The notes under the pieces: model-generated
The model's input: the letters and a program-made list of their open reading frames with translations, nothing else
Databases searched by the model: none
What the model was told of the DNA's origin: nothing
Position numbers and translations under genes: made by a program
Shown: positions 4,921 through 43,648 of the stretch, piece by piece
Layout of the letters: every line of letters begins with the position of its first letter
Position numbering within the stretch: position 1 is the stretch's first letter
Source of the DNA: Chitinophagales bacterium
Lineage (GTDB): Bacteria; Bacteroidota; Bacteroidia; Chitinophagales; Chitinophagaceae
DNA: 45,139 bases
Assembly: GCA_030832085.1 (NCBI GenBank)
Contig: JAURJU010000091.1
Coordinates: 1 to 45,139 of the forward strand
Reading direction: 5' to 3'

Positions 4921-5754
4921 TTATTGGAGCTGATAGGCCGCCACATGGTTCTTCCAGAATGTGGGCACGTAGACAATTTTATTTTTCTTATCAAATCCAA
5001 TGTCGGCTGTATTCATTCCCTCTTTTCTGCTATCCAACAATAATTTCTTCTCACCATTTGTCTTTACCAGCCAAATGGAACCTGCCCAACAGGAAACCAG
5101 AAGCGTATTTTCATCCACTTGTTCAATGCCATCGGTGCCTCCTTCCATTCCATCCGCAATCAGGATTTTTTCCTTGTCTTTTCCAAATTTATACAGACCC
5201 CCAGCATCCGTAAAGAAAAGGGTCTTGTCAACATAATGCAACCCGTTAGGGCCATTCAGCCCTTCAGCATACAAACTCACTTCCAATTTGTTAACGTCGA
5301 TGTAGTGGATTTTTTTGGTCTTGGAATCTGATACATACATGTTACCCCGCTTGTCAGAGGTTATGTCATTCAGGGCCTTTGCCCCTTCGACGTAAATTTT
5401 CTTGACGATTTGTGCCTTGGTCACTTCAATGATTGCAACAGAATCCACATCGGCAACTACCAGAAAATCACCAAACATGGTCATGCCTTTAGGCGCATGC
5501 AATCCTTTTATCCACTCGGGATTGAGAATTTTTCCTGAAAGGGTAAGCAGAGAAATGGAACCCTTTCCGTCTTTGTCCCAGGCACCTTTGCCATCTATGT
5601 TGGTGACATAAAGGCGCTGGTTTTTGCTGTCCAGCAATACAGATTCAGGAACTTTCAGTGTTGTGTCTGTGGCCCACAATTTCTTGAGTTCCTGACCAAT
5701 TGCAACTGATCCCATAGACAACAACAGAGACAATAAAAGCATTGTTTGTTTCAT
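4921..5754 (-). CDS. Secreted SMP-30/gluconolactonase-like beta-propeller protein
   Basis: A 277-residue protein with a signal peptide (MKQTMLLLSLLLSMGSVAIGQ) and repeated propeller strands of the SMP-30/gluconolactonase/LRE type. Possible metal-site residues in family positions are E37 (VPESVLLD), N129 or D130 (ALNDITSD), N170 (GPNGLHY) and D208 (GTDGIEQ). Family members hydrolyse sugar lactones or other esters; many secreted Bacteroidota members have no known substrate. It is the last gene of the epimerase-GH95-GH127-dehydrogenase run, 16 bp after the dehydrogenase. A role on an aldonolactone from released arabinose or fucose is possible but is inference only. Confidence 0.75.
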   Translation of the reverse strand: MKQTMLLLSLLLSMGSVAIGQELKKLWATDTTLKVPESVLLDSKNQRLYVTNIDGKGAWDKDGKGSISLLTLSGKILNPEWIKGLHAPKGMTMFGDFLVVADVDSVAIIEVTKAQIVKKIYVEGAKALNDITSDKRGNMYVSDSKTKKIHYIDVNKLEVSLYAEGLNGPNGLHYVDKTLFFTDAGGLYKFGKDKEKILIADGMEGGTDGIEQVDENTLLVSCWAGSIWLVKTNGEKKLLLDSRKEGMNTADIGFDKKNKIVYVPTFWKNHVAAYQLQ

Positions 5755-5770
5755 AAAAGAGATTTATTTT

Positions 5771-7012
5771 TTATCGTTCAACATTGAATGCATTGATATC
5801 CATGCTCATTTTTTCTCCTCCGACAATTTCCTCGACAAGCTTGCCTGTTGCAGCTGCCAGCGACAAACCAAGCATTGCATGTCCTCCTGCCATGACGATG
5901 TTGTCATATTTTGAATGCCTGCCAATGTATGGAAGGCCATCGGGGCTCAAAGGCCTCAATCCATACCAAATCTTGTCCTGTGCAGGAAACGTTACGGGCA
6001 GATCAGGATAATAATTTTTTGCGGCCTTGAAAATCGCCTGAACCCTTTTCATCAGCATGGGTGAACCGATGCCACTGATCTCCATGGTTCCACCCATCCT
6101 GAGATCTGCGCCCATCGGAGTCATCGCAACCCTGTCATCGACAAGAATTGCAGGATAATGAAGATTTTTTTCGACCGCGTTAAAAGTCATGCTATATCCC
6201 TTTCCTGCTTGAAGGAGAAGGTCTATACCCAGATCTCGGCTGGTTGCAGGCAACCATGATCCTGTAGCCAAAACAACCTCATCACCAGAAAAATCACCTT
6301 TATCTGTCAATACTTTGGTTACTTTTCTTCCTTGCTTTTCAAATTCGGTGATGGTTGTTTCCAGTTGAAACTTCACACCCGATTTTTGAAGGGCTTCATG
6401 GATGGTATGCATCAGGTCACCAGGATGCAAATGGGCATCGATGGGATACAGTACCCCTCCCCTTACATTGACCTCCACCTCCGGCTCCATGTCCTGAACC
6501 TCTTTGGCACTGAATATTCTTGTTTCAATGTTCAGGGCCGCAGCTTCTTTTGCCAGTTCAATCTCATGCTTCTCAGTCAAAGCACTTTTGTACAACATGA
6601 AACATCCTTTTTCCTCCATCCGGAAATGATTGCCCAAATCATTTCTCATTGTTGATGTGAGTTCCCGGCTCAGGTGAAGAATATTGTTGAGGTGGGGAAT
6701 GTTTCTTTCCATGGTAGACTTTCCGGAACGCTTCCAAAAAGTCAATGCCCATCGAATAAGGTCAAGATCCAACCTTGGTTTGATATAAAATGGGGAACTA
6801 GAACTCAGCATCCATTGCAAACCTTTGGCAACAATCCCTGGAGACGCAAGGGGAATAAAATGACTTGGTGAAATATAGCCTGCATTGCCAAATGAAGTGC
6901 CTTTTTTCAGGTCACCCTTTTCAATGAGTATAACCTCATGACCTGCCTTGTTCAAATAGTATGCCGCACACATCCCTATAACACCTCCACCAGCTACGAT
7001 TACCTTGCCCAT
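5771..7012 (-). CDS. FAD-dependent D-amino-acid dehydrogenase, probable cis-4-hydroxy-D-proline dehydrogenase
   Basis: A 413-residue DadA-like flavoenzyme. The FAD Rossmann motif GGGVIG is at residues 8-13, followed by the acidic strand end ILIEK. ATGSW lies at 249-253, and the C-terminal FAD contact regions are GLRPLSPDGLPYIG (351-364) and GGHAMLG (376-382). Such enzymes oxidise D-amino acids to imino acids and pass electrons to the respiratory chain. Because the 4-hydroxyproline 2-epimerase, the DapA-like deaminase and the semialdehyde dehydrogenase are in the same region, the likely substrate is cis-4-hydroxy-D-proline, giving 1-pyrroline-4-hydroxy-2-carboxylate. It has no signal peptide and acts in the cytoplasm. 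It lies 55 bp after GH127 and 16 bp before the SMP-30 gene. It is the single-subunit type rather than a multi-subunit hydroxyproline oxidase. Specificity is inferred from context. Confidence 0.85.
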   Translation of the reverse strand: MGKVIVAGGGVIGMCAAYYLNKAGHEVILIEKGDLKKGTSFGNAGYISPSHFIPLASPGIVAKGLQWMLSSSSPFYIKPRLDLDLIRWALTFWKRSGKSTMERNIPHLNNILHLSRELTSTMRNDLGNHFRMEEKGCFMLYKSALTEKHEIELAKEAAALNIETRIFSAKEVQDMEPEVEVNVRGGVLYPIDAHLHPGDLMHTIHEALQKSGVKFQLETTITEFEKQGRKVTKVLTDKGDFSGDEVVLATGSWLPATSRDLGIDLLLQAGKGYSMTFNAVEKNLHYPAILVDDRVAMTPMGADLRMGGTMEISGIGSPMLMKRVQAIFKAAKNYYPDLPVTFPAQDKIWYGLRPLSPDGLPYIGRHSKYDNIVMAGGHAMLGLSLAAATGKLVEEIVGGEKMSMDINAFNVER

Positions 7013-7067
7013 TGATCCGTTTTTTTCGAAGTTAGTTTAATTAAAAATCACCCATTGCAGACTGGGC

Positions 7068-9038
7068 CTAGTAATTTATTTTGACATCCCTTACAGCGGT
7101 GGGCAACCATACCTGCATGGGATTGCTCCCACGGTTGCACCATGCATAATAAGGAATGGCACGAACTTTTTGGTTGACCATTTTTGTTGACTGCCCATCA
7201 GCGTCAATCTGCAATACAGGCAACTCAGCAACAAGGCTAATTAGTTTTTCATCCAACACATTAAAATTTTCGGTCTCAAAAACAGCAGTTGTTGGCGTAA
7301 ATATATTCCATGCCTTTCCATTGTTGTCTGCTCCTTCAACGCAATAGACAATTGGACCCCTTTGCAGCGCAACCCTGTCATTGTTGTACACCAACTCATT
7401 TCTTGCCTTGATTTTACGAAGCTCCATGGGCATCAGGTATTCTACCTTATCTCCATCTGCCCATTCTTTTTCAACAATGGCATACCCATTTTCTTCTTTG
7501 AAGGCTACGGCTTTACCATTTACAAGTAGCGTTGGATTTGCATTGGATTGGTTGGTGAAAGCATAAAGATCACCAGGTGCTGGTGCATTCCTGAGCCATC
7601 CGGGAATCCTGAATGCAAGTGAAGCTTTTTCTTTTTTGCTGATGGAGATCTTACAACTGACATTTCCCTGCCATGGATATGATGTAGTTGTTTTAATTTT
7701 CATGGTTGAATTTGCCAAATCAAATGACGATTCGCTGCCCACAAAAAGATTGATGTAGATCTTATTGTGTTCTTGCCCGTAGACATAGCCTCCAACCGAG
7801 GTAATCAATCTTGCAATGTTTGATGGACAGCAAGCGGTTCCGAACCATTCTCTTCTGCTGTGATTGCCTTGTGATGCAAGTGGATTGCCATAGAAAAAAC
7901 GATCACCACTCAAAGAAAGTCCATCCAATGCACCATTGTATAAACTCCTCTCCAAAACATCGATGTATTCTGCTTTACCAGTAAGGCTGTTCATCCGTTG
8001 GTTCCAAAACACCATCCCAACAGAGGCACAGGTTTCACAATAGGCCTGCTCATTGGGAAGATCAAAATCCTTGGAAAAACCTTCGTTTTTACCTGCAGAC
8101 CCAATGGCTCCGGTGATGTACATGTTGCGAAATACAACATCCTCCCAAACCCTTCTCATTGCAACGAGATAGTCACTGTCGCCGGTATGTGTAGCCACAT
8201 CTGCAGCACCTGTATACAGGTACATCGCACGTACTGCATGTCCTGTTATTTCTGACTGCTCCTTCACTGGAAACAAATCTTGTGAATAGTCGGTTCCCTT
8301 GTTGTTTTTCCATTGGGAGCCTATTCCGTGTTCCTTCCCTCTTTCTGAAAGTAGCCAATCGGCCAGCTTAAGGTATCTCTTCTCACCTGTGGTTTTGTAC
8401 AGCTTAACCAAAGCCAGCTCCAGCTCCTGGTGGCCAGTCACCCAGTTTCTTTTTCCAGGACCAAATGTTGCATCAAAATGATCAGCCCAACGCTTGGCGA
8501 CTTCGAGAAATTTCTTTTTTCCAGTCGCATCAAAATAAGCAACAGCTGCTTCAACCATATGCCCACCACAATAATCTTCGTGCTTGTCCATGTCTGACCA
8601 ACGCTTGTCCAATCCTGTGAGTGTATAATAGGTATTGAGGTATCCGTCCGGTTGCTGTGCAGCTGCAATCTTGTCAATCCACTCATCGGCTTTATCCTCA
8701 AGTGTCTTGTTTCCTGTAAGCTTTATGGCATAAGCCATTGCTTCAATCGCTTTATATACATCTGAATCATCGAAAAAAATGCCTTCGTGTTTTTCGCCCT
8801 TTCCTCTTGCGGCCTTTTCAAAATTTCGTATCCGTCCGGTGTTCACTTCCGTTTGGTAAATGCATGCTGATAATGTTTTTGTTGCGACCTTATCAATTTT
8901 GGGTTTCCAAAAATCATCATTGACAATTACCCTGGAAAAATTGACAGGATCAATGTGGACATTGACCTGCTGGGCATTACCTAGAAAAGCATTCAACATT
9001 AAAAGTCCAGTCTGAAAAATTCTGGTATTGGATATCAT
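7068..9038 (-). CDS. GH127 family beta-L-arabinofuranosidase, secreted
   Basis: A 656-residue exported glycosidase of the DUF1680/GH127 family. Characterised members release beta-L-arabinofuranose, notably from hydroxyproline-linked arabino-oligosaccharides of extensin; another member works on aceric acid of RG-II. By alignment from memory to Bifidobacterium HypBA1, the zinc ligands are E335, C337 (CETCASVG), C403 and C404 (GTACCPSN), with C403 the nucleophile and E319 the acid/base; the E319-E335 spacing of 16 matches. An (alpha/alpha)6 barrel covers about residues 60-420 and beta-sandwich domains follow. The ATG at 9038 opens a signal peptide (ending LGNAQQ) and leaves 14 bp after GH95. The reading frame runs open 66 codons further upstream, but that part lies inside GH95. 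It shares a gene run with hydroxyproline catabolic genes, which supports the Hyp-arabinoside substrate. Confidence 0.92.
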   Translation of the reverse strand: MISNTRIFQTGLLMLNAFLGNAQQVNVHIDPVNFSRVIVNDDFWKPKIDKVATKTLSACIYQTEVNTGRIRNFEKAARGKGEKHEGIFFDDSDVYKAIEAMAYAIKLTGNKTLEDKADEWIDKIAAAQQPDGYLNTYYTLTGLDKRWSDMDKHEDYCGGHMVEAAVAYFDATGKKKFLEVAKRWADHFDATFGPGKRNWVTGHQELELALVKLYKTTGEKRYLKLADWLLSERGKEHGIGSQWKNNKGTDYSQDLFPVKEQSEITGHAVRAMYLYTGAADVATHTGDSDYLVAMRRVWEDVVFRNMYITGAIGSAGKNEGFSKDFDLPNEQAYCETCASVGMVFWNQRMNSLTGKAEYIDVLERSLYNGALDGLSLSGDRFFYGNPLASQGNHSRREWFGTACCPSNIARLITSVGGYVYGQEHNKIYINLFVGSESSFDLANSTMKIKTTTSYPWQGNVSCKISISKKEKASLAFRIPGWLRNAPAPGDLYAFTNQSNANPTLLVNGKAVAFKEENGYAIVEKEWADGDKVEYLMPMELRKIKARNELVYNNDRVALQRGPIVYCVEGADNNGKAWNIFTPTTAVFETENFNVLDEKLISLVAELPVLQIDADGQSTKMVNQKVRAIPYYAWCNRGSNPMQVWLPTAVRDVKINY

Positions 9039-9052
9039 AAAAAATGATTGGA

Positions 9053-11434
9053 TTAGAATTGAATGGACAGGGGTTTGCTGGAACTGATCTGCCAGGTTTT
9101 TGCACCATACCTGACCTGCTTGTTGATGGCGGTTGATGGTCTGACATTTGCAGACTTGAGCTTCCCATTTTCCCATACAATATCCACCGTCAAATTGCCC
9201 CTTGCTTTCAAACCCTTTACTGAACCATTGGGCCACTCAATTGGCAACGCCGGTAACAAAAGGATTTCATCATCATGGCTCTGCATCAGCATTTCAGCGA
9301 TTCCTGAAGTGGCACCAAAATTTCCATCAATCTGAAAAGGAGGATGCGCATCAAACAAGTTGGGATAGGTTCCGCCACCCGCCATTTTCACTTCATTGCG
9401 GTCTGCTGGATAATAGGTAAGAATGGTCTTGATGGCATCATAGGCCCTTTCACCATTATGCAGCCTTGCCCAGAGGTTGATCTTCCAAGCAATGGACCAT
9501 CCCGTACCATTGTTTGTTCTCAGTTCCAGTGAACGCTTAACGGCATCGGCCAAAGCCGGTTGTTTGGACATTGTTATCGATGCACCTGGATACAAACCGA
9601 AAAGATGAGAAACATGGCGGTGGTTGGGATCATTGTCGGCCCAATCATAGTACCACTCCTGCAAATTTCCTTTCTTCCCCACCTGATAAGGATGAAGCTG
9701 CGCCAAAGCCTGTTTCAATTGTATTGAAAATGCAGGATCCTGTTTCAGTATGTGCTCAGCATCAATAACATTGGCAAACAACTCCCGGATCATGGCCAGG
9801 TCTGCTGTGCCGCCAAACAATACAGCGCCTTTCTGTCCCTTATCAGTAATGAATACGTTTTCCGGGGATGTTGATGGAGCTGTCACCAAATTACCTTTGG
9901 AATCTTTCACCAAAAATTGCAGACAAAACAAGGCCGCCCCTTTCATGATGGGATAAGCCTCCTTTTTCAGGAATGCAGTATCATTTGAAAAAAGAAAATG
10001 CTGCCAAAGATGTGTCGTCATCCAGGTTCCGCCCATCGTCCAGTTGGCCCACACAGGATCCCCCTTGCCAAAATCACCAACAGGATTTGAAATGCCCCAG
10101 ATGTCAGAGTTGTGGTGGGCCACCCATCCATCCAGCCCATAGAATGATTTCGCAGTAACGGCACCTGTTTTACTCAGGTTCTTGATAAAGCCCATCATGG
10201 GTTGATGAAACTCGGACAGGTTCGTGGTTTCCACCGGCCAATAATTCATCTCGGTATTGATGTTGATGGTATAATTGCTGCTCCAGGGTGGACGGACCTG
10301 TTCGTTCCAAATGCCCTGCAAGTTGGTGGGTACTCCTGGCGTGCGGGAGGAACTGATCATCAGGTATCTGCCAAACTGGAAATACAGCGCCACCAGCGCA
10401 TTGTCACGCGCACCTTTTGAAAAATTTTTCAAGCGCTGGTCAACAGGCAAAAGTTGTTCTGCTGAAGAACCCAGGTCCAAAGAAACACGGTTGTAATAAT
10501 TTGAAAAATCAGCAACATGCTTTTTTAGCAGTATGTCGTATTGGGCTGATCCGAGTTTTTGCAATGCCGCTTCAGCCATGCGCTTCTCGTTTCTGCCTTG
10601 TTGCACAGGATGTTTATCAAAGCCATTGAAACTGGTTCCCAGTGAAATGGCCAAGAGTATTTCATTCGCATCCGAAACCTGAATGGTGCTGTCAGAAATG
10701 GTTTGATGGCCGTTGGTGGACAAGACTTTTATAAGACTGGTGAAACGCATGGCATTGGCACTGTCGTATTGTACTGCATTCGGCATGTTGCCCCTGTAAC
10801 TGGGTTCAGCAAGTGAAGGTGCCAATCCATTCATGGACAGACCTGCAGGAGACATTTCCACTTTGTGTCGAAGCAAACTGTTCATGGTCAGTACAACATC
10901 CATCTTGTTTTTTCCTTTTGCACTGAGTTTTACAAACATCAGCTGGTCGGGATGGGAAACCCAATATTCGCGGGAATACCTTGTTTCATCCGCTTCAACC
11001 AAGACAGTGACCACCGCCCTTGCCAGGTCCAGCATCCGTGAATATTTGGAAGGTTCCTTGATGTTGAAATTCATGAAAAGGTTTCCGAGGGGTGCATAGG
11101 ATGCCGAGAACTTTCCCTGGATGAATTTTGTAAGGCTGTCTGCCTTTTTGTAGTTACCAGCAAAAAGTGCTTCTCTCACCAATGGAAGATATTGCTTTGC
11201 ACCAGGATTCATGTTAGGATCTACAGGATAACCGGCCCAAAGGGTTGCCTCATTCAAGGATATCCGGTCTTTGCTGACACCACCATACACCATTCCACCT
11301 ATGCGTCCGTTGCCTATTGGAAGGGCATCCTCAAAATAAGCTGCAGGCTTATCAAATACCATCTGATCTTTCTGTTGTGCATTGGCAACCCCCGCGGCAA
11401 GCAGCAAAAAAAATAAAATGTTTTTATTCATCAT
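9053..11434 (-). CDS. GH95 family alpha-L-fucosidase or alpha-L-galactosidase, secreted
   Basis: A 793-residue exported inverting glycosidase. The signal peptide is MMNKNILFFLLLAAGVANAQ. The N-terminal GH95 beta domain begins with ALPIGNGRIGGMVYGG (37-52) and SLNEATLWAG. The (alpha/alpha)6 barrel carries N391 and N393 in NINTEMNYWP and D703 in QIDGNFGATSG, matching the Asn/Asn/Asp site of Bifidobacterium AfcA; E525 in STSPEN is the probable general acid. Family members remove terminal alpha-L-fucose, and some prefer L-galactose, from plant xyloglucan, arabinogalactan proteins or RG-II and from host glycans. It lies 9 bp after the hydroxyproline epimerase and 14 bp before GH127. Terminal fucose on arabinogalactan-protein side chains would fit the neighbours; the exact substrate cannot be read from the sequence. 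Confidence 0.93.
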   Translation of the reverse strand: MMNKNILFFLLLAAGVANAQQKDQMVFDKPAAYFEDALPIGNGRIGGMVYGGVSKDRISLNEATLWAGYPVDPNMNPGAKQYLPLVREALFAGNYKKADSLTKFIQGKFSASYAPLGNLFMNFNIKEPSKYSRMLDLARAVVTVLVEADETRYSREYWVSHPDQLMFVKLSAKGKNKMDVVLTMNSLLRHKVEMSPAGLSMNGLAPSLAEPSYRGNMPNAVQYDSANAMRFTSLIKVLSTNGHQTISDSTIQVSDANEILLAISLGTSFNGFDKHPVQQGRNEKRMAEAALQKLGSAQYDILLKKHVADFSNYYNRVSLDLGSSAEQLLPVDQRLKNFSKGARDNALVALYFQFGRYLMISSSRTPGVPTNLQGIWNEQVRPPWSSNYTININTEMNYWPVETTNLSEFHQPMMGFIKNLSKTGAVTAKSFYGLDGWVAHHNSDIWGISNPVGDFGKGDPVWANWTMGGTWMTTHLWQHFLFSNDTAFLKKEAYPIMKGAALFCLQFLVKDSKGNLVTAPSTSPENVFITDKGQKGAVLFGGTADLAMIRELFANVIDAEHILKQDPAFSIQLKQALAQLHPYQVGKKGNLQEWYYDWADNDPNHRHVSHLFGLYPGASITMSKQPALADAVKRSLELRTNNGTGWSIAWKINLWARLHNGERAYDAIKTILTYYPADRNEVKMAGGGTYPNLFDAHPPFQIDGNFGATSGIAEMLMQSHDDEILLLPALPIEWPNGSVKGLKARGNLTVDIVWENGKLKSANVRPSTAINKQVRYGAKTWQISSSKPLSIQF

Positions 11435-11443
11435 GTGTCGATT

Positions 11444-12496
11444 TTAAATTACCTGAAATCCATGGGCATATGGATCGTCGTTGGCCTCAATAGAAATGGT
11501 ATTGTGACCATAAATTTTAGCCCATCCCTCAATGGAAGGACGCATGGCAGGTTTGCCATTCACTGTGGTCTCCTCGACGATCCTACCAATAAACTTACTG
11601 CCAATGATGCTTTCGTGTATGAATTCATCTCCTTTTTTCAAGATCCCTTTTGTATACCATTGGGCCATGCGCGCGCTGGTACCTGTTCCACAGGGTGATC
11701 GGTCTATCGCCTTATCCCCATAAAAAACAGCATTGCGTGCAGTTGATGTGGCATCGATGACGGCACCACACCACAAGATATGGCTGCAGGAATGAATTGT
11801 TGGATCCTCAGGATGAATGAATTGGTACAAAGCATTGATATTGCTGCGAAGCTGCCTTGCCATGCTCACCAGTTGGTCAGCAGTAAAATGCTCCAAGCCG
11901 GGAAAGTTTTTTTGGACATCAACGATGGCATAAAAATTCCCACCATACGCAACGTCTACATGGATGGTGCCAAGCCCTGGACATTCGACGGGAAGATTGG
12001 ACTGGTCCAGGTATCCCGGAACGTTGGTCAGCCGGACAGCACTTACCTTTTCTCCTTTCATCTGGTAGGTGATGTGTACCAGACCAGCTGGTGCTTCCAT
12101 TCGAACCTGTCCACTGATCTTTGGCTTTACCAACCCCGACTCGATGGCTGCAGTGATTGTACCAATTGTTCCATGCCCACACATGGGCAAACACCCACTG
12201 GTTTCTATAAAGAGTACTGCGAAATCATTTTCAGGATCATGTGGTGGATAAAGTATACTGCCGCTCATCATGTCATGGCCCCTTGGCTCAAACATCAGTC
12301 CCTTTCTGATCCAATCAAATTCCCTCAAAAAATGCTGCCGTTTTTCACTCATGTTTCGGCCTTCCAAAGCAGGACCACCTGAAACAACCAGCCTGACCGG
12401 ATTCCCGCAGGTATGTGCGTCAACACACTCGAAAACATGTCCCGACAAATGGTGCGAAACATGGCGCAACGGCAGGGAAAGTGCTTTTGTATACAT
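11444..12496 (-). CDS. 4-hydroxyproline 2-epimerase (proline racemase family)
   Basis: Converts trans-4-hydroxy-L-proline to cis-4-hydroxy-D-proline, the first step of bacterial hydroxyproline catabolism. The 350-residue protein has both catalytic cysteines of the family: C106 in MCGHGTIG and C269 in DRSPCGTGTSA. This marks it as a racemase/epimerase, since 3-hydroxyproline dehydratases carry threonine at the second position. The family opening VDAHTCGNPVRLV is at residues 25-37. No signal peptide, so cytoplasmic. Proline racemase is the main alternative, but linked D-hydroxyproline dehydrogenase, DapA-like deaminase and KGSA dehydrogenase make the hydroxyproline enzyme far more likely. It is the first gene of a minus-strand run, 9 bp before GH95, and diverges from the sterol-desaturase-like gene over about 52 bp. 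Confidence 0.92.
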   Translation of the reverse strand: MYTKALSLPLRHVSHHLSGHVFECVDAHTCGNPVRLVVSGGPALEGRNMSEKRQHFLREFDWIRKGLMFEPRGHDMMSGSILYPPHDPENDFAVLFIETSGCLPMCGHGTIGTITAAIESGLVKPKISGQVRMEAPAGLVHITYQMKGEKVSAVRLTNVPGYLDQSNLPVECPGLGTIHVDVAYGGNFYAIVDVQKNFPGLEHFTADQLVSMARQLRSNINALYQFIHPEDPTIHSCSHILWCGAVIDATSTARNAVFYGDKAIDRSPCGTGTSARMAQWYTKGILKKGDEFIHESIIGSKFIGRIVEETTVNGKPAMRPSIEGWAKIYGHNTISIEANDDPYAHGFQVI

Positions 12497-12548
12497 AGAA
12501 GTACAATTTAATTAAAATGAACGAAATTAGCTGTCTAATCAGGTGTTT

Positions 12549-13820
12549 ATGGAGACATATGGAAAGATTCTTTTGGTTGCCATGCCAATATTTTTGCTAT
12601 TGGTTTTGTTTGAAAAATGGTATGGCTGGCGAAAAGGAAAAGACACGGTCCAAATTATGGATATGGTTTCGTCGCTTTCGTCCGGTGTCACCAATGTAAC
12701 AAAGGACGTACTTGGCCTCAGTGTAGCCATCCTGGGATATGGATGGATGGTGGACCACCTTGCTTTCATGCACATTGAGGAAGGCATTGTCGTTTATGTC
12801 ATTGCTTTCATTGCCCTGGACTTTTCAGGCTATTGGATCCACCGGATTCAACATACCACCAATGTTTTTTGGAATGCGCACATCATCCACCACAGCAGTG
12901 AGGAATTCAATCTGGCCTGTGCATTGCGACAAAGCATTTCTGTTTTTTTCAAGCTTTTTACTTTTTTTCTGTTTCCTGCAGCACTGCTCGGAGTACCTGG
13001 CAATGTGATTGCAGTTGTAGCACCGATTCACCTTTTCATTCAGTTCTGGTACCATACCCAACACATTGGGAAAATGGGCATTCTGGAAAAAATCATTGTA
13101 ACTCCATCACATCACAGGGTTCACCACGCGATCAATCCTGAATACATCGATAAAAACTATTCACAGGTTTTTATCATATGGGACAAGCTTTTCGGCAGTT
13201 TTCAGGAAGAGAAAAACCAAATACCCCCGGTGTATGGCATCACACATCCTGTTTCCACCTGGAATCCGATAAAAATCAATTTTCAGCACATCTTTTTATT
13301 GGTTTCGGACGCTTGGAAAACAAGAAACTGGATAGACAAGGTCCGGATCTGGTTCATGCCTACTGGTTGGAGACCTGCTGATGTCGCCCAACAATTTCCC
13401 CGGTTGAAAATTGAAAATGTATATGACTTTAAAAAATACAACCCGAAAAGCAGCAAGGGGCTGGAAGCTTGGTCGTGCATTCAACTTTTGTTGTTGCTGT
13501 TCTTCGTATCCTACCTGTTTGGGCATATTGCTCAAATTGGCAGTCCAGGCATTTTTCTCTATGGACTTTTCATTTTCCTCTATATCTATGCATTGACATC
13601 GCTGATGGATAATGACAAGGATGCCCCTGTTTGGGAAGGCATGAAATTGCTTACTGGAATTTACCTGATATATTCAACTGGGGGATGGTTCGGTGCAGAA
13701 AAATATCATCTTGCAATTCCCTATGCAGTAGGCGCTTATCTGTTCGCTGCAATGTATTTATCCACCAACTTTTCCATCAAACGCAGTGTAAGCGTGCCCT
13801 CTGAAAGCAACATGTCGTGA
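12549..13820 (+). CDS. Sterol desaturase / alkylglycerol monooxygenase-like membrane di-iron protein
   Basis: A 423-residue integral membrane protein of the fatty acid hydroxylase superfamily. The histidine clusters that bind the di-iron centre are HRIQH (98-102), HIIHH (111-115), YHTQH (168-172) and SHHRVHH (187-193). Membrane helices flank them at about 5-22, 55-70, 80-97 and 130-165, with a further hydrophobic C-terminal block (about 315-415), as in AGMO-like proteins. The class oxidises lipid C-H bonds with O2; the substrate here is unknown. An in-frame GTG at 12543 is an alternative start; ATG is preferred. It is the only plus-strand gene within the hydroxyproline region, and its last 85 bp overlap the 3' end of the DUF885 gene on the other strand. 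No functional link to its neighbours is apparent. Confidence 0.88.
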   Translation: METYGKILLVAMPIFLLLVLFEKWYGWRKGKDTVQIMDMVSSLSSGVTNVTKDVLGLSVAILGYGWMVDHLAFMHIEEGIVVYVIAFIALDFSGYWIHRIQHTTNVFWNAHIIHHSSEEFNLACALRQSISVFFKLFTFFLFPAALLGVPGNVIAVVAPIHLFIQFWYHTQHIGKMGILEKIIVTPSHHRVHHAINPEYIDKNYSQVFIIWDKLFGSFQEEKNQIPPVYGITHPVSTWNPIKINFQHIFLLVSDAWKTRNWIDKVRIWFMPTGWRPADVAQQFPRLKIENVYDFKKYNPKSSKGLEAWSCIQLLLLLFFVSYLFGHIAQIGSPGIFLYGLFIFLYIYALTSLMDNDKDAPVWEGMKLLTGIYLIYSTGGWFGAEKYHLAIPYAVGAYLFAAMYLSTNFSIKRSVSVPSESNMS

Positions 13821-15460
13821 AACTGTCTAACATCAAATTTTTCTCCCAAGATTGAATTGGCCCGCTTGCGCAGTTCCTTTATTTTCAGCTCTCCCATTTT
13901 GTACGCAAGGGCCTGACCAGGCCAGGCGATGTAACGGTTGATTTCAGTATTGACTTCGTGCATGGAAAGTGCCGTATTTTCAGCAAGATATTCCACTGCC
14001 TGATCACGTGTCCATCCTTTTGCATGAAGACCTACATCAATCACCAACCTGCAGGCCCTCCACATGTCATAGGTGAGTTGACCGAAGCTGCTGTATGGGT
14101 CCTGGTAAAGGCCAATTTCATAGCCCAAAGATTCTGCATACAATCCCCATCCCTCCCCAAAGGCATTGACATAGAGATTTCTTCTAAAGGTGGGCAGGTT
14201 TTCAAGTTCCTGGGTGAGTGACATCTGCAGGTGGTGACCTGGAACAGCCTCATGGAGTGTAAGGGCTTCCAGGGTATATAAACTTCTTGATGGGAGGTTG
14301 TAAAGATTGACCCAATAGTTTCCTGCACGGGTGCTTTTGATGGATGAAGGTGAGTAGCGGCCTGCGGTATAAGTAGGTGCAATGTCCGCTGGTACCGGCT
14401 CAATGCCGTAGGGTTGACGTGGCAGACGACCGAACAGGAGTGGTAGTTTTCCATCAATTTTTTTAGCAATGAAAGAGGCCTCCTTGAGCAATGCATCTCC
14501 AGTAGTGGGATAAAATTTGGGGTCAGTCCGCAGTGATTGAATGAATGCCTTCATATCACCCTGAAAACCGACTTGCAATTTGATTTCCTCCATTCCTTTT
14601 TTTATCCGATAGACTTCTTTCAAACCAATCTGAAAAATGGAATCATAACCCAGATCCGTAGTGGTGAAATGCTTCACCCTTTCCTGGTAAAATGCCAATC
14701 CCTCCGGGAAAAATTGGGCTCCGGGGTTTTTCGGTGCCCTGCCGAGGTACTCGTTTTCAAAAAAAGCCTTTACTTTCCTAAAAGCCAATACTGCACTGGA
14801 AAGAATGGCATCCTCCCCTTTTTTTTGAATGGATTGCCAAACGGTCTGGTCAAGGTTGCCTGGCTTTTTTGAGAATGGTTTCCAAAAGGTTGACAGCTTT
14901 GGATCTGTTACGATATGAACTTCATAGGTATTTGAAAAGCCTTTGACCACATCGCTGGGCTGTGCGATTCCAAGCCTTAACCCTTCACGCATGAGTTCGA
15001 AATGTTCCTCCATGAAACGTGGCAAATCATTCAACTTGGCAATGTATGCCTCAGCATCCTTTGTTGTTCGAATGGTTGTATTGGCAATGCCTGTGACATT
15101 GGTAAAAAAACCACCTTCAGAGAGGATTGGATTGAGGTAGGATTTAAAAGCATAATCAGATATCTCATCCTCAAAGCTATAGCAAAGCAGTGCTGCATTG
15201 ATTTCATCAGTAAAATCCAGCTGCAATGGATCAATGGCCTTGATTTCCCGGTCCAGTGCAACATAAAAATCATGTCTTCTTTTTGCCTCAGCAGCCCCAT
15301 GAAGCCCAAGGGGAAATCCAGTGGCCTGTTCCAGCTTCCGTTCTTGTTCATTGAATGATGCAATCTTTTTCAAAGCCGACTTCAAAACAGGATGTGCAGG
15401 TTCAGGCTGTGCCTGGCAGAAATTTGCTGCGAACAGCAAGAAAAGAAATATAAATTTCAT
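13736..15460 (-). CDS. Secreted DUF885 family putative zinc peptidase
   Basis: A 574-residue exported protein with signal peptide MKFIFLFLLFAANFCQAQ. It has the DUF885 metallopeptidase-like motif LTLHEAVPGHHLQ (HEAVPGHH at 403-410) followed by EGWGLYAE (436-443), a likely zinc site with a downstream glutamate. DUF885 proteins are poorly characterised and generally annotated as peptidases. The gene starts 9 bp after the KGSA dehydrogenase gene and is third in the deaminase-dehydrogenase-DUF885 run. A role in trimming hydroxyproline- or proline-containing peptides after arabinose removal is an attractive inference, but nothing in the sequence proves it. Its last 85 bp overlap the convergent sterol-desaturase-like gene. 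Confidence 0.82.
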   Translation of the reverse strand: MKFIFLFLLFAANFCQAQPEPAHPVLKSALKKIASFNEQERKLEQATGFPLGLHGAAEAKRRHDFYVALDREIKAIDPLQLDFTDEINAALLCYSFEDEISDYAFKSYLNPILSEGGFFTNVTGIANTTIRTTKDAEAYIAKLNDLPRFMEEHFELMREGLRLGIAQPSDVVKGFSNTYEVHIVTDPKLSTFWKPFSKKPGNLDQTVWQSIQKKGEDAILSSAVLAFRKVKAFFENEYLGRAPKNPGAQFFPEGLAFYQERVKHFTTTDLGYDSIFQIGLKEVYRIKKGMEEIKLQVGFQGDMKAFIQSLRTDPKFYPTTGDALLKEASFIAKKIDGKLPLLFGRLPRQPYGIEPVPADIAPTYTAGRYSPSSIKSTRAGNYWVNLYNLPSRSLYTLEALTLHEAVPGHHLQMSLTQELENLPTFRRNLYVNAFGEGWGLYAESLGYEIGLYQDPYSSFGQLTYDMWRACRLVIDVGLHAKGWTRDQAVEYLAENTALSMHEVNTEINRYIAWPGQALAYKMGELKIKELRKRANSILGEKFDVRQFHDMLLSEGTLTLRLMEKLVDKYIAANR

Positions 15461-15469
15461 GCCGCAAGT

Positions 15470-17017
15470 TTATTCTATCACCCTGTTGATCATCAGCGGA
15501 TTTTCTGATTTCAATGCATCAGGCAACAAAGCATCCGGATAATTTTGGTAAGAAAGAGGACGGGCAAAACGCTTGATGCCGTCAGCACCCACTGAAGTAA
15601 ACCTGGAGTCTGTTGATGCTGGAAATGGACCGCCATGTTGCATGGCAAGACAAACTTCAACGCCAGTTGGCACGCCATTCATGATGATGCGGCCACATTT
15701 TCCTGAAAGGGTATCAACAATATCCATGTTGCCCAATGCCTCGTTTTCTGTTGCCATTATTGTTGAAGTCAGTTGACCTTCCATTGCAGTGGCAACAGCT
15801 TTCATCTCATTTGTATTGTTGCACATCACGACCAATGAAAACGGACCAAATACTTCTTCCCCCAACAAGGGGTTTTCCAAAAATTCAGCTGCTGGTACTG
15901 AGGCCAGCAAAGGGCGAGGAACAGGGATTGGGGCTTGTCCGGACAATGCGGAAACAGATGAGACCCCTTTTTGCTGTAAAACTGCTTCAGCCTTGTTGAC
16001 AAAGGCTGCTGCAATACCTGGATGAAGCATCTTGCCAACGCTGATGGCGTCCATCTTTTCTCCCAACAATGAAACAAAAGCCTGCATTGCTGCGGAGTCA
16101 ACACCAACTATGATACCAGGATTTGTACAAAACTGACCTACACCCAGTGTTATTGATTCAGCAATCATTTTTGCAATACCAGCAGGGTCAGTTGATAGTT
16201 TTTCTTCAAATAAAAATACTGGATTGGTGCTGCCCATTTCTGCAAACACAGGGATGGGCACCTTCCGTTGATTTGCCCAAATGAATAATGCCATTCCCCC
16301 AGTGAAAGAACCCGTAAAGCCTACTGCCATTGCTGCTGGATGCTTTACCAACGCCTCGCCAACTGCATGGGAGGCACCATGCAGGTGAATGAAAATGTCT
16401 TGCGGCATATCAAGCTTTGAAATTGCTCTGCTGATGGCACCCGCAACCAGTTCAGATGTTTCTGGGTGGGCTGGATGCGCCTTTACCACAACAGTACATC
16501 CGGCAGCCAGTGCAGATGCAGTGTCTCCACCTGCGGTTGAATAAGCGTAAGGAAAATTGCTGGATCCAAATACCAGAACAGGACCCAGGGGTACGAGCAT
16601 TTTCCGAATATCAGGCCTGGCTGGTACTTTATCCGGAACTGCAGTGCAAATTCTTGCTTCCAGCCAATCGCCCTTTTCGCATGCATCCGCATAACTTTTC
16701 AGCTGAAACATTGTCCGGGCTTTCTCACCTTTCAACCTTGGTTCAGGAAGATTTGTCTCGCGCATGGTCACATGGATCAGCTCCTCTCCCAGCGCATCGA
16801 TTTCATCTGCAATGGCACGCATCAATGTCGCCCGTTGTTGCAAGGATGATTTGGAATAGGCCTTGAAAGCCTTTCCAGACCTCATCATGGCTTCATTCAC
16901 CTGTTCTGTAGTTGCATCTGAAAACATGTTGCTATTTTCTGTTGTTGATTGGAATATTGTTTGTGTCAAAAAGGAACTTGGATTGAAATCAAAGGATGGG
17001 TCTTGTTGCAATTCCAT
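15470..17017 (-). CDS. Alpha-ketoglutaric semialdehyde dehydrogenase
   Basis: A 515-residue aldehyde dehydrogenase superfamily member that would oxidise 2,5-dioxopentanoate to 2-oxoglutarate with NAD(P)+, the last step of hydroxyproline catabolism. Catalytic residues are N154 (SSNFPYAYS), E260 (FAEMGSTNP) and C297 (GQFCTNPG). GFTGSFTGG (233-241) is the cofactor loop. The motifs GQFCTNPG and AEMGSTNPVF are typical of the KGSA dehydrogenase branch used in hydroxyproline, arabinose and glucarate pathways. If the ATG at 17017 is used, the gene overlaps the upstream deaminase gene by 29 bp, suggesting translational coupling. An ATG at 16927 is a shorter alternative, but the residues before it look like normal ALDH N-terminal sequence. 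The same product could also serve an oxidative L-arabinose pathway. Confidence 0.9.
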   Translation of the reverse strand: MELQQDPSFDFNPSSFLTQTIFQSTTENSNMFSDATTEQVNEAMMRSGKAFKAYSKSSLQQRATLMRAIADEIDALGEELIHVTMRETNLPEPRLKGEKARTMFQLKSYADACEKGDWLEARICTAVPDKVPARPDIRKMLVPLGPVLVFGSSNFPYAYSTAGGDTASALAAGCTVVVKAHPAHPETSELVAGAISRAISKLDMPQDIFIHLHGASHAVGEALVKHPAAMAVGFTGSFTGGMALFIWANQRKVPIPVFAEMGSTNPVFLFEEKLSTDPAGIAKMIAESITLGVGQFCTNPGIIVGVDSAAMQAFVSLLGEKMDAISVGKMLHPGIAAAFVNKAEAVLQQKGVSSVSALSGQAPIPVPRPLLASVPAAEFLENPLLGEEVFGPFSLVVMCNNTNEMKAVATAMEGQLTSTIMATENEALGNMDIVDTLSGKCGRIIMNGVPTGVEVCLAMQHGGPFPASTDSRFTSVGADGIKRFARPLSYQNYPDALLPDALKSENPLMINRVIE

Positions 17018-17888
17018 CCTTGATGACTTTCAGGATTCTCTCCCTCTCCTCACCCACCAACGGGAGTCGTGGAGCACGAACATGCTCCGAACCTATGCCT
17101 GTTTGGGCAGCTGCCAGCTTGATGTACTGAACCAATTTGGGATGTATATCCAATTCAAGCAAGGGCATGAACCAACGGTAAATTTTGATGGCCTCCTCCA
17201 TTTTTCCTGATTTCACAAGGTTGTACATGACAACTGTTTCCTTGGGAAATGCATCCACCAGGCCTGCAACCAGTCCGTCAGCCCCTAATGCAAGTTCCTC
17301 TACGGTAAGTGGATCGACGCCACAGAGTACTGCAAAGCGATCACCGAACCTGTTCTTGAGCCGGGTAATATTGGTTACATCACGGGTAGATTCTTTGATG
17401 GCATTGATGTGCGGAATGGATGCCAGTTCAGCAAACATGTCCAATGTTACATCGATCTTGTAATCCACAGGATTGTTGTAGATCATGATGGGCAGATCAG
17501 TATTGGCTGCAACGGCTTTGAAAAATTCCACTACTTCCCTGTCATCGGCCTTGTAGCGCATAGGAGGAAGCAGCATAATACCATCCGCGCCCCATTCCTT
17601 GGCCAAAACGGCCTGATGAACAGCATCCCTGGTTGAACCCTCGGCAATATTCATGATTACCGGAAGTTTACTCCCCAATTTTTTGACAGAAAACCTGACC
17701 AACTGCTCTTTTTCTGCCAATGTTAGTGAGCTTGCTTCACCCAAGGAACCACCAATGATGATTCCATGAATTCCTGCTTCCACTTGGGCATCAAGATTTT
17801 TCTCGTACATAGCAAGGTCTAGCTGGTCGTTGGCATCAAAAGGGGTAAGAAGGGCTGGAAAAACGCCTTTCCATTGAAATGAAGACAT
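16989..17888 (-). CDS. DapA-family lyase, probable 1-pyrroline-4-hydroxy-2-carboxylate deaminase
   Basis: A 299-residue class I aldolase-type TIM barrel. The Schiff-base lysine is K165 (NAIKESTRD) and the conserved tyrosine Y137 (MIYNNP). Residues 46-51 read GGSLGE instead of the GTTGE of true dihydrodipicolinate synthase, pointing to another branch of the superfamily. Next to the epimerase, D-amino-acid dehydrogenase and KGSA dehydrogenase, the likely reaction is deamination of 1-pyrroline-4-hydroxy-2-carboxylate to alpha-ketoglutarate semialdehyde. 2-keto-3-deoxy-L-arabonate dehydratase makes the same product and is the main alternative. The ATG at 17888 begins MSSFQWKGVFPALLTPF, the normal family start; an in-frame ATG at 17939 adds a non-conserved stretch. 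First gene of its run. Confidence 0.87.
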   Translation of the reverse strand: MSSFQWKGVFPALLTPFDANDQLDLAMYEKNLDAQVEAGIHGIIIGGSLGEASSLTLAEKEQLVRFSVKKLGSKLPVIMNIAEGSTRDAVHQAVLAKEWGADGIMLLPPMRYKADDREVVEFFKAVAANTDLPIMIYNNPVDYKIDVTLDMFAELASIPHINAIKESTRDVTNITRLKNRFGDRFAVLCGVDPLTVEELALGADGLVAGLVDAFPKETVVMYNLVKSGKMEEAIKIYRWFMPLLELDIHPKLVQYIKLAAAQTGIGSEHVRAPRLPLVGEERERILKVIKDGIATRPIL

Positions 17889-21120: not shown

Positions 21121-22782
21121 TTAGAAAAAGATGATGTTCAAAAGGATGGTGATGACCAAAAGGATGATGCTCAATGGTGCTGGCCTCAGGTACCAACGCT
21201 TCTCAGTACCATATACCTTTTCGGTGAGGGAATAAACCAGCCCCCGTAATTCCTCGTCAGATTTGGGCTTGGTGAACAAGCTTACGGCAATGGTTGTGAG
21301 GAAATTTGCAATCCAAGAGAATGATGCTACTATAAAGGCCTGTCCCATGCCACTGCTTACAGGATAGATGGGAGATATCCATCCGCCCTTGCCCTCTGCA
21401 ATGGTCAACCCGTGGGTGACTGCTGCAGCAAGGGTACCCGCAACCAACCCCCAAAAGGCACCATGACCAGTCGTTCGCTTCCAGAACATGCCCAGTAAAA
21501 AAGTTGCGAACAAAGGTCCATTCACAAAGCTGAAAACCAGTTGAAGAAAATCATTGATGTTGTTAAAACTGGCTGCTATATATGCAGTGCCGATTGAAAA
21601 CAAGATGCCAAACAGGGTTACGAGTTTACCTACATTCAGGTAATGCTTGTCTGATTTGTTTTTGAAAAAATAGGCCTGGTAGATGTCATAGGTGAAAACC
21701 GAATTGAATGCTGTAACATTACCGGCCATGCCACTCATGAATGATGCTATCAGCGCAGTGATGCCCACACCCAGCAGACCACTGGGATAGTAGTATGCAA
21801 TCAATGAAGGCAGGGTCATGGTATAATCGTATCCTCCTGCAGCATCTGAAGGAATTCTGTAATCACCGGCGTCCATGGCTGATTTTGTAAGGGCAATGGC
21901 AATAACTCCAGGAAGAACAACAATCAGGGGCATGAACATTTTTGGGATGGCGGCAATGATGGGAGTGCGTTGTGCAGCACTCATGTTTTTCGCAATCATG
22001 GCACGCTGGACCACCAAAAAATCGGTACACCAGTATCCAAAAGACATGACAAAACCAAGTCCAAATATCAGGGACATGAATTGTATGCCCATAGGGTTTG
22101 AATCAGGTGATCCCATGTACTTCCATGCATGTGTCAGTTGTGGCTCAAGATTCGTTTTAATCGTATCCCACCCTCCTGCATCCTGCAGTGCAACAATGAC
22201 CAAGGGTGACAAACCCAAAACGATCAAAAAGAACTGCAGTACCTCATTGTATACTGCACTGGTCAAGCCCCCCAGTAATGTATAGGCCATCACGATGCCC
22301 GCTGCAATCCAAATGCAGAGATCAAAATTCCAATGCAGGATTACCTCAAGTAGTTTTGCCAATGCATACAAGGAGATGCCCGATGAAAAGATGGTCATTG
22401 CTGCAAAGGTGAGTGCATTCAGCGCCCTTGTCTTTTCATCAAAACGCAGGAAAAGGTATTCTGGCACGCTTCTCGCCTTGCTGCCATAATAAAATGGCAT
22501 CATGAACACTCCAAGAAAAATCATGGCAAAAATCGCACCCACCCAATAAAAATGGACGGTCATGATGCCGTACTTTGCGCCAGAGGCCACCATCCCCAGC
22601 ACCTCCTGCGCACCCAGGTTTGCTGAAATAAAAGCAAGGCTGGTGATCCAAAGGGGAATGCTTCGGTTGCTGTTCAGAAAATCATTGCTAGAAGTGATTT
22701 TTTTCTTGATGATGAATCCTACGGCAACAACAAAAACAAAATAAATGAAAATGACAAGGTAATCGGCAAAATGAAGACTCAT
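21121..22782 (-). CDS. Sodium:solute symporter (SSS/SGLT family), possibly for myo-inositol
   Basis: A 553-residue inner-membrane transporter with about 13-14 helices. SSS signatures include the N-terminal ADYLVIFIYFVFVVAVG helix, ANLGAQEVLGMVASGAKYG, the SVPEYLFLRF segment, YTLLGGLTSAVYNEVLQFF and GYWCTDFLVVQRAMIAKN. It is of the SGLT-like branch that takes up sugars, inositol and related polyols with Na+. The inositol oxygenase gene diverges from it over a 144-bp gap, so myo-inositol is the best guess for substrate. A uronate or hexose is possible. First gene of a run with a small membrane protein, a flavin reductase and a GDSL esterase. Confidence 0.9.
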   Translation of the reverse strand: MSLHFADYLVIFIYFVFVVAVGFIIKKKITSSNDFLNSNRSIPLWITSLAFISANLGAQEVLGMVASGAKYGIMTVHFYWVGAIFAMIFLGVFMMPFYYGSKARSVPEYLFLRFDEKTRALNALTFAAMTIFSSGISLYALAKLLEVILHWNFDLCIWIAAGIVMAYTLLGGLTSAVYNEVLQFFLIVLGLSPLVIVALQDAGGWDTIKTNLEPQLTHAWKYMGSPDSNPMGIQFMSLIFGLGFVMSFGYWCTDFLVVQRAMIAKNMSAAQRTPIIAAIPKMFMPLIVVLPGVIAIALTKSAMDAGDYRIPSDAAGGYDYTMTLPSLIAYYYPSGLLGVGITALIASFMSGMAGNVTAFNSVFTYDIYQAYFFKNKSDKHYLNVGKLVTLFGILFSIGTAYIAASFNNINDFLQLVFSFVNGPLFATFLLGMFWKRTTGHGAFWGLVAGTLAAAVTHGLTIAEGKGGWISPIYPVSSGMGQAFIVASFSWIANFLTTIAVSLFTKPKSDEELRGLVYSLTEKVYGTEKRWYLRPAPLSIILLVITILLNIIFF

Positions 22783-35754: not shown

Positions 35755-35764
35755 GTATAAAAAT

Positions 35765-43620: not shown

Positions 43621-43648
43621 TTGTTCATTTACATTTTATGTGTTGCGC

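What the first reader, a model, noticed from the sequence alone, without database searches (positions are those of the whole stretch)
4921..17888. A complete hydroxyproline catabolic pathway interleaved with GH127 and GH95: a candidate hydroxyproline-rich glycoprotein utilisation system
The epimerase, GH95, GH127, D-hydroxyproline dehydrogenase and SMP-30 genes are in one minus-strand run with gaps of 9, 14, 55 and 16 bp. The deaminase, KGSA dehydrogenase and DUF885 peptidase form a second run just upstream (29-bp overlap, 9-bp gap). GH127 enzymes are known to release beta-L-arabinose from Hyp-linked arabinosides of extensin, and the four catabolic enzymes would take the freed hydroxyproline to 2-oxoglutarate. 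Linking glycan removal and imino-acid catabolism in one operon suggests that plant extensin or arabinogalactan protein is eaten as both sugar and nitrogen source. I do not know of this exact combination being described.
Basis: partly seen in the sequence, partly recalled or inferred. Interest (0 to 1): 0.88.

Follow-up and report, generated by a model that had tools for sequence, protein, structure and literature searches.

The report
Plant-glycoprotein sugar and hydroxyproline operon
Soil and freshwater bacteria repeatedly pack enzymes that look able to strip arabinose from plant cell-wall glycoproteins into the same gene cluster as enzymes that burn hydroxyproline, the amino acid carrying that sugar, which suggests they eat both halves of the molecule.

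Summary
In detail: all eight genes and every stated gap are real. The 4-hydroxyproline epimerase (HypE) passes a curated cut-off, and GH127 keeps the HypBA1 active-site and zinc residues. In 80 HypE-bearing genomes, 47 of 241 GH127-domain genes (GH127 or GH146 type) lie within 8 kb of HypE, against 0.9 expected; 34 of 80 genomes have one. The window's GH127 ortholog is beside hydroxyproline genes in 25 of 48 genomes. Other arabinosidases and peptidases occur beside HypE in other arrangements. The shared logic points to Hyp-O-arabinosides of plant hydroxyproline-rich glycoproteins. Eight searches found no paper describing it.

Limits: GH95's role is unknown and it is rare in these clusters. The window has two runs split by an opposite-strand gene. 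No transporter lies in the runs. 53 of 92 HypE loci lack such an arabinosidase within 8 kb, and a same-genus genome kept GH127 without HypE. Outside the family the link was seen in 4 of 35 HypE genomes, all one genus. Extensin versus arabinogalactan protein is unresolved; no activity was tested. Every enzyme family is known; the composite is a new variant.

The parts
4921..5754 (-). SMP-30/gluconolactonase-like beta-propeller, signal-peptide-like N-terminus by eye; role unknown
   Evidence: Weak Pfam SGL, below cut-off; model pLDDT 92.3; best PDB fold match Cj1041c of Campylobacter jejuni, TMq 0.80; relatives within 8 kb of HypE in 10 of 92 loci
5771..7012 (-). FAD-dependent D-amino-acid dehydrogenase, probable D-hydroxyproline dehydrogenase
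   Evidence: Pfam DAO 213.5 bits, NCBIfam D-amino acid dehydrogenase subfamily below cut-off; within 8 kb of HypE in 72 of 92 loci
7068..9038 (-). GH127 beta-L-arabinofuranosidase-like enzyme, signal-peptide-like N-terminus by eye
   Evidence: 13 of 14 HypBA1 positions printed are identical, among them H142, Y145, H194, R273, E322, E338, C340, C417, C418; C415 is T. Linked to hydroxyproline genes in 25 of 48 orthologs
9053..11434 (-). GH95 alpha-L-fucosidase/alpha-L-galactosidase-like enzyme; substrate unknown
   Evidence: Pfam GH95 598.9 bits; PDB best 2rdy 713 bits; cluster c28 within 8 kb of HypE in 4 of 92 loci, of which only the window and L114 have it directly after HypE
11444..12496 (-). 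4-hydroxyproline 2-epimerase (HypE)
   Evidence: NCBIfam PRK13971 574.2 bits, cut-off 376; only PF05544 match in the genome
12543..13820 (+). Fatty-acid hydroxylase family gene between the two runs, opposite strand
   Evidence: Pfam FA_hydroxylase 94.9 bits; relatives within 8 kb of HypE in 29 of 92 loci
13736..15460 (-). DUF885 family putative metallopeptidase, signal-peptide-like N-terminus by eye
   Evidence: Pfam DUF885 504.8 bits; two DUF885 clusters near HypE, 14 and 2 of 92 loci, no overlap
15470..17017 (-). Aldehyde dehydrogenase, probable 2-oxoglutarate semialdehyde dehydrogenase
   Evidence: Pfam Aldedh 151.4 bits; PDB best 3v4c and 1eyy, about 400 bits; near HypE in 67 of 92 loci
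16989..17888 (-). DHDPS-family enzyme, probable pyrroline-4-hydroxy-2-carboxylate deaminase
   Evidence: Pfam DHDPS 208.1 bits; 189.7 bits against the dapA equivalog cut-off of 206.15; near HypE in 74 of 92 loci

Best explanation
This is a catabolic locus for hydroxyproline O-arabinosides of plant hydroxyproline-rich glycoproteins (extensins, possibly arabinogalactan proteins). Inferred steps: exported GH127 (in relatives also GH146, GH51, a GH5-like enzyme and others) removes L-arabinofuranose from Hyp in the periplasm or at the surface; DUF885 and other peptidases shorten the deglycosylated peptides; trans-4-hydroxy-L-proline enters the cell through a carrier not in the cluster. HypE epimerises it, the FAD enzyme oxidises it to pyrroline-4-hydroxy-2-carboxylate, the DHDPS-family enzyme deaminates it to 2-oxoglutarate semialdehyde, and the ALDH makes 2-oxoglutarate. 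Shown here: gene families, active-site conservation, and gene linkage far above chance and recurrent in relatives. Inferred: substrate, localisation, transport, co-expression and the role of GH95.
For: HypE equivalog and pathway families. GH127 residues. 47 of 241 GH127/GH146-type genes within 8 kb of HypE in 80 genomes against 0.89 expected; 34 of 80 genomes. Ortholog group (at least 54% identity, 48 genes): 21 within 5 kb of HypE plus 4 beside a contig-cut HypE or beside the D-Hyp dehydrogenase. In 16 of the 21 the order HypE - GH127 - dehydrogenase is seen on one strand. Other families recur within 8 kb of HypE (named from one Pfam-scanned or BLAST-matched member each): GH146 type in 20 of 92, GH51 in 6, GH27 or GH36-like in 7, DUF885 in 16, S9 and M24 peptidases in 9. 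PMC10850190 (passages) cites a GH146 acting on Araf-beta-Hyp; PMC6085000 (passages) reports Xanthomonas enzymes acting on Hyp-arabinosides and a neighbouring (broken) prolyl oligopeptidase gene. The genome's other GH127 is an aceric acid hydrolase equivalog (1047.6 bits, cut-off 950), whereas the window's is not (423 bits).
Against: 53 of 92 HypE loci carry no arabinosidase of the four kinds within 8 kb. 23 of 48 GH127 orthologs are not seen beside hydroxyproline genes, including basal ones, though some lie on short contigs; 13 are in genomes without a HypE hit at 1e-60, one of which (G137) has a HypE cut by a contig end. G053, same genus, kept GH127 and SMP-30 at the syntenic place without HypE. 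GH127 is closer in sequence to 6ex6 and 4qjy than to HypBA1. No transporter lies in the runs. No L-arabinose isomerase was found in the genome. Neither GH121 nor GH43 was recognised in the neighbourhoods, but the family tally shown was cut at 25 of 122 and GH121 was not searched for by name.
Confidence: 0.72

Rival explanations
1. The GH127 and GH95 belong to pectin (rhamnogalacturonan II or I) breakdown, since a rhamnogalacturonan utilisation locus lies at 24-45 kb, and they merely sit beside a hydroxyproline operon.
For: Window genes 23910-45097 include PL11, GH28, GH106-like, GDSL-type and SusC/D-like proteins. GH127 and GH95 members act on RG-II in Bacteroides (recalled). The best NCBIfam model for the window GH127 is aceric acid hydrolase, below cut-off.
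Against: Within about 10 kb of the other 91 HypE genes, of eight pectin-locus proteins only a GH28 at 25% identity and distant SusC matches appear. In the window the locus itself begins 11 kb from HypE, so I also read 10-30 kb on both sides in 10 of the 21 linked genomes: none of the pectin enzymes, one distant SusC. The genome's true aceric acid hydrolase is elsewhere, on C8.
Confidence: 0.12
2. Neutral or regulatory clustering: the family is rich in glycosidases, and GH127 was caught in a stable, unrelated hydroxyproline (for example collagen-derived) operon.
For: 53 of 92 HypE loci lack arabinosidases; one same-genus genome kept GH127 without HypE.
Against: Roughly 50-fold enrichment; several different families and gene orders; the linked state is scattered over the GH127 ortholog tree, needing 9 changes of state with corrected labels, so it has been kept, lost or regained many times. 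No matched control anchor was run.
Confidence: 0.08
3. The target is arabinogalactan protein rather than extensin, with GH95 as an alpha-L-fucosidase and GH127 taking terminal beta-L-Araf as BT3674 does.
For: GH95 is present in the window; PMC10850190 (passages) says BT3674, a GH127, aids larch arabinogalactan breakdown. That 6ex6, the best PDB hit, is BT3674 is recalled, not checked.
Against: No exo-galactanase family was seen among the families shown for the arabinosidase-bearing HypE neighbourhoods, but only 25 of 122 were shown. Release of free Hyp fits the short Hyp-arabinosides better (inference).
Confidence: 0.3

Closest known systems
Bifidobacterium longum HypBA1/HypBA2/HypAA system and GH146 Bll4HypBA1
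   Same: GH127/GH146 cysteine glycosidases; removal of beta-L-Araf from Hyp of plant glycoproteins (PMC10850190: passages; PMC7263609: search listing only)
   Different: There arabinose use is described; no hydroxyproline catabolism appears with it in what I saw. No GH121 was recognised in the window locus.
Xanthomonas euvesicatoria XeHypBA1/XeHypBA2/XeHypAA
   Same: Hyp-arabinoside enzymes with a prolyl oligopeptidase gene nearby (PMC6085000, passages)
   Different: XeHypBA1 is GH146 and XeHypAA GH43; no hydroxyproline catabolic genes mentioned in the passages ('catabol' does not occur in the text)
Bacterial trans-4-hydroxyproline catabolism (HypE, D-Hyp oxidase/dehydrogenase, deaminase, 2-oxoglutarate semialdehyde dehydrogenase)
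   Same: Same four reaction families (pathway recalled)
   Different: The genome-neighbourhood study PMC4113996 has no occurrence of 'glycoside', 'glycosyl' or 'arabino' in its main text (find only); here arabinosidases are interleaved
Bacteroidota polysaccharide utilisation loci
   Same: Co-clustered glycosidases with export signals; a SusC-like cluster (named from size and BLAST) within 8 kb in 13 of 92 HypE loci
   Different: The core here is an amino-acid pathway, and no SusC/D pair lies in the window's runs

Membership tests
4-hydroxyproline epimerase | Curated equivalog score | tested here: met
   PRK13971 574.2 bits against 376
GH127 beta-L-arabinofuranosidase | GH127 catalytic, middle and C-terminal domains | tested here: met
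   PF07944, PF20736, PF20737 over cut-off
GH127 beta-L-arabinofuranosidase | Zn ligands, Cys nucleophile, Glu acid/base and substrate residues of HypBA1 | tested here: met
   13 of 14 positions printed identical; the exception, C415 to T, is not one of the named ligands (ligand numbers partly recalled)
GH127 beta-L-arabinofuranosidase | Activity on beta-L-Araf linked to Hyp | not testable with these tools
   Needs enzyme assay
Aceric acid hydrolase (RG-II GH127) | Curated equivalog score | tested here: not met
   423.1 bits against 950 for the window protein; met by the genome's other GH127, 1047.6 bits
GH95 | GH95 catalytic, N and C domains | tested here: met
   PF22124, PF14498, PF21307
GH95 | Fucosidase or L-galactosidase specificity | not tested
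   No specificity residues examined
Hydroxyproline catabolic pathway | Epimerase, D-Hyp dehydrogenase, deaminase and semialdehyde dehydrogenase together | tested here: met
   All four families in the window; last three assigned by family and context, no equivalog cut-off reached
Polysaccharide utilisation locus | SusC/SusD pair in the cluster | tested here: not met
   None within 4921-17888; the SusC/D-like pair at 37-42 kb lies in the pectin locus

The most novel reading that the evidence does not exclude
A repeatedly assembled Hyp-glycoside utilisation locus exists in the window's family, probably Chitinophagaceae. Arabinosidases (GH127, GH146, GH51), alpha-galactosidase-like enzymes, peptidases and still unassigned families (a 350-aa clan GH-A-like enzyme and a GtaA/DUF4964-type protein) are combined with hydroxyproline catabolism, so both sugar and imino acid of plant wall glycoproteins are eaten. 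In the window's genus, where no L-arabinose isomerase was found, arabinose might even join hydroxyproline at 2-oxoglutarate semialdehyde.
Probability: 0.5. Interest if true: 0.75.

Novelty: new variant of a known kind. Interest (0 to 1): 0.62.

Why it matters
Hydroxyproline-rich glycoproteins are tough, abundant plant wall proteins (recalled), and I found little on how soil and freshwater bacteria recycle their nitrogen. A locus joining sugar removal and imino-acid breakdown gives a genetic marker for the trait, named isolates to test, and candidate new glycosidase groups whose substrate can be guessed from context.

Tried and rejected
Rejected: pectin origin of the linkage, as far as tested. 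Rejected: window GH127 as aceric acid hydrolase. Weak and left open: arabinose and hydroxyproline converging on 2-oxoglutarate semialdehyde. AraA was not found in 3 of 3 genomes of the window's genus, and the window genome has a sugar-acid dehydratase next to a GntP permease scoring 862.8 bits against the 882-bit L-arabinonate dehydratase cut-off, so the cut-off is not met. Over the 48 genomes the two genes are not anti-correlated: AraA in 33 of 48, the dehydratase (E 1e-180 or better, none over the cut-off) in 29 of 48, in 7 of the 15 without AraA. The SMP-30-like fold search gave no lactonase assignment. The GH5-like model (pLDDT 78.4) shows a clan GH-A-type barrel with low TM-scores, and no such gene was found in the window genome at 1e-50.

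Mended on checking: the first tblastn table used an out-of-frame GH127 query; its GH127 identities are ignored. The tree count of 11 changes labelled four linked genes as unlinked; with these corrected and three contig-limited genes left out it is 9 (51 rows, 31 linked, 20 not).

Data dropped or capped: one search kept the best 80 of 593 relatives. The density count used 80 of the 92 HypE genomes because the tool takes at most 80 handles; I left out 12, eight of them under 90% complete, including two with linked GH127 (G152, G191). Its expectation uses rounded genome sizes. One search received 79 of 97 unnamed ORFs: 13 of the 18 left out come from loci that look like near-copies of loci kept (L123, L200, L202; not measured), four from L179 and one from the window were simply left out. 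Searches scored at most 6 and 3 candidates a genome. Searches covered 10 of the 21 linked genomes.
Full report
OBSERVATION. The window is contig C66 of a 2.89-Mb, 111-contig assembly. Families were confirmed by Pfam and NCBIfam. HypE is the only proline-racemase-family match of the genome and passes the PRK13971 4-hydroxyproline epimerase cut-off (574.2 against 376 bits). The dehydrogenase, DHDPS-family and ALDH genes are assigned by family and context; none reaches an equivalog cut-off. The ALDH is closest to 3v4c and 1eyy; the dehydrogenase to glycine oxidases, under 100 bits. A fatty-acid-hydroxylase gene on the other strand separates the two minus-strand runs. N-termini of GH127, GH95, DUF885 and the SMP-30-like protein look like export signals by eye; no predictor was run.

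GH127. It has the three GH127 domains and best PDB matches 6ex6 (501.5 bits), 4qjy (478.1), HypBA1 (350.8) and 5mqo (252.7). Mapping the printed HypBA1 alignment, 13 of 14 positions looked at are identical, including the substrate residues H142, Y145, H194, R273 (named in PMC10850190, passages) and E322, E338, C340, C417, C418 (roles recalled); C415 is T. The genome has one further PF07944 gene, on contig C8, which is a clear aceric acid hydrolase (1047.6 bits, cut-off 950). The window copy is not (423.1 bits).

IS THE LINK MORE THAN CHANCE? A scan of GTDB contigs with HypE gave 593 relatives, of which the best 80 were kept. ORF clustering showed GH127 orthologs after HypE in several, with GH95, a GH5-like protein, a GH146-type protein or GH51 in some. 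I then drew 195 genomes of the window's family: HypE (E 1e-60) in 92 of 195. The window GH127 has a clear ortholog group of 48 genes in 48 genomes at 54% identity or more, with the next full-length hits at 48% or less (a short fragment in G177 not counted). Twenty-one of the 48 lie within 5 kb of HypE. All 92 HypE neighbourhoods, about 10 kb each side or to the contig end, were fetched (the window for G000) and mapped: 20 of the 21 are on the strand of HypE, and in 16 the dehydrogenase follows on the same strand. Fetching the remaining orthologs added four beside hydroxyproline genes: G137 with a HypE cut by the contig end, and G126, G059 and G120 beside the dehydrogenase. So 25 of 48 are linked, and some of the rest lie on short contigs that cannot tell.

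A density control used 80 of the 92 genomes: 241 PF07944 genes (GH127 and GH146 types), 47 within 8 kb of HypE against 0.89 expected from genome size; 34 of 80 genomes have at least one, 0.88 expected. The expectation ignores clustering of glycosidases, shared ancestry and contig ends, so the Poisson tail printed there is not a fair p-value, but an about 50-fold excess is not explained by that. No matched anchor gene was run as a control. Across all 92 loci, within 8 kb (disjointness checked): GH127 in 30, GH146 type in 20, either in 37; GH51 in 6 (two clusters, 2 and 4), GH5-like in 7, GH95 in 4, GH36-like in 4, GH27 in 3, GtaA-type in 4, DUF885 in 16 (14 and 2), S9 in 4, M24 in 5, SusC-like in 13. 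Any of the four arabinosidase kinds: 39 of 92. So 53 of 92 have none. Clusters were named from one Pfam-scanned member each, the smaller GH51 cluster and SusC from likeness to scanned or window proteins.

GH95. It directly follows HypE in the window, L114 and the GTDB loci L002, L003 and L004. Two further HypE loci have a 47%-identical GH95 elsewhere within 8 kb (L157, L184). It is thus a local addition.

INDEPENDENCE. On a tree of 68 GH127 proteins (quick method) the hydroxyproline-linked state is scattered over the ortholog group: 9 changes of state with corrected labels, and the basal orthologs are unlinked. The count cannot tell gain from loss. A second GH127 type (about 800 aa, 40-48% identity to the window's), GH146-type proteins and GH51 lie near HypE in other orders. 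Outside the family, in 395 genomes of the class, HypE occurs in 40, of which 35 lie outside the family; by position, GH127 within 6 kb was seen in four of these, all of genus g184 (at most 3 candidates scored a genome). Three GTDB loci, two named Mucilaginibacter (L059, L063) and one unnamed Bacteroidetes (L064), show GH127 about 5 kb from HypE. The link is thus a feature of this family with at least one further occurrence, not Bacteroidota-wide.

COUNTER-EVIDENCE. G053, same genus, keeps GH127 next to SMP-30 in the same synteny but has no HypE hit (its other hydroxyproline genes were not searched genome-wide), so GH127 can be useful without hydroxyproline catabolism or is a relic. Thirteen of the 48 GH127 orthologs are in genomes without a HypE hit, G137 among them. 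No transporter lies in the runs; an SSF symporter at 21121-22782 is a candidate only. L-arabinose isomerase was not found in the window genome nor in two same-genus genomes, but is in 33 of 48 genomes with the ortholog, so the fate of arabinose in the window organism is open.

PECTIN RIVAL. A rhamnogalacturonan-type locus lies at 23910-45097. Of eight of its proteins, within about 10 kb of the other HypE genes only a GH28 at 25% identity and distant SusC matches were found. As that locus begins 11 kb from HypE in the window, I also read 10-30 kb on both sides in 10 of the 21 linked genomes: one distant SusC, nothing else.

MECHANISM. Exported arabinosidases free Hyp from its arabinofuranosides, peptidases release Hyp, and the four cytoplasmic enzymes convert it to 2-oxoglutarate. 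The literature seen supports the chemistry: a GH146 takes the last Araf from Hyp, and HypBA1 is a GH127 (PMC10850190, passages); Xanthomonas XeHyp enzymes act on the same glycans and have a broken prolyl oligopeptidase gene nearby (PMC6085000, passages). Galactosidase-like genes in some relatives would fit Ser-linked galactose of extensin (recalled chemistry). GH95 does not fit extensin well and may point to arabinogalactan protein.

LITERATURE. Eight full-text searches listed no paper that I could see joining hydroxyproline catabolism with these glycosidases in one cluster. I opened five papers, by word search within the text only; one of them, PMC6085000, came from a reference list. PMC4454575 (passages) infers extensin use by Latescibacteria from GH127. 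PMC4113996 on proline-racemase neighbourhoods does not contain 'glycoside', 'glycosyl' or 'arabino'. PMC4598101 on Chitinophaga pinensis does not contain 'hydroxyproline' or 'GH127'. The library lacks most subscription journals and preprints, so absence is weak evidence.

VERDICT. Real, well above chance, and sensibly explained as a Hyp-arabinoside utilisation locus; known enzyme families in a combination that appears new.

Noticed in passing
12543-13820: A fatty-acid-hydroxylase-family gene lies within 8 kb of HypE in 29 of 92 HypE loci, mostly on the opposite strand just beside it; no obvious link to hydroxyproline.
   Followed up: partly
31741-35775: A 1344-aa protein joins an N-terminal oligogalacturonate-lyase-like domain (PF14583) to a GH106 alpha-L-rhamnosidase-type domain, in a rhamnogalacturonan locus with PL11, GH28 and SusC/D-like genes.
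   Followed up: no
L132:6400-7458 and relatives (alignment A1): A 350-aa clan GH-A-like protein, weak Pfam GH5; 9 of its 14 closest family members (63% identity or more) lie beside hydroxyproline genes: a candidate new glycosidase group.
   Followed up: partly
L115:12639-15047 and relatives: GtaA/DUF4964/DUF5127 six-hairpin proteins next to GH127 in several HypE clusters; named glutaminase-like in Pfam but could be a glycosidase.
   Followed up: no
L236:9736-12826 (G000 contig C36): Sugar-acid dehydratase just under the L-arabinonate dehydratase cut-off, next to a GntP permease, in a genome without an L-arabinose isomerase match.
   Followed up: partly
L205 (G053:C98): Same-genus genome with GH127 and SMP-30 retained at the syntenic place but no hydroxyproline genes there and no HypE hit.
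   Followed up: partly
42169-45097: Two fasciclin-domain genes follow the SusC/D-like pair of the pectin locus.
   Followed up: no
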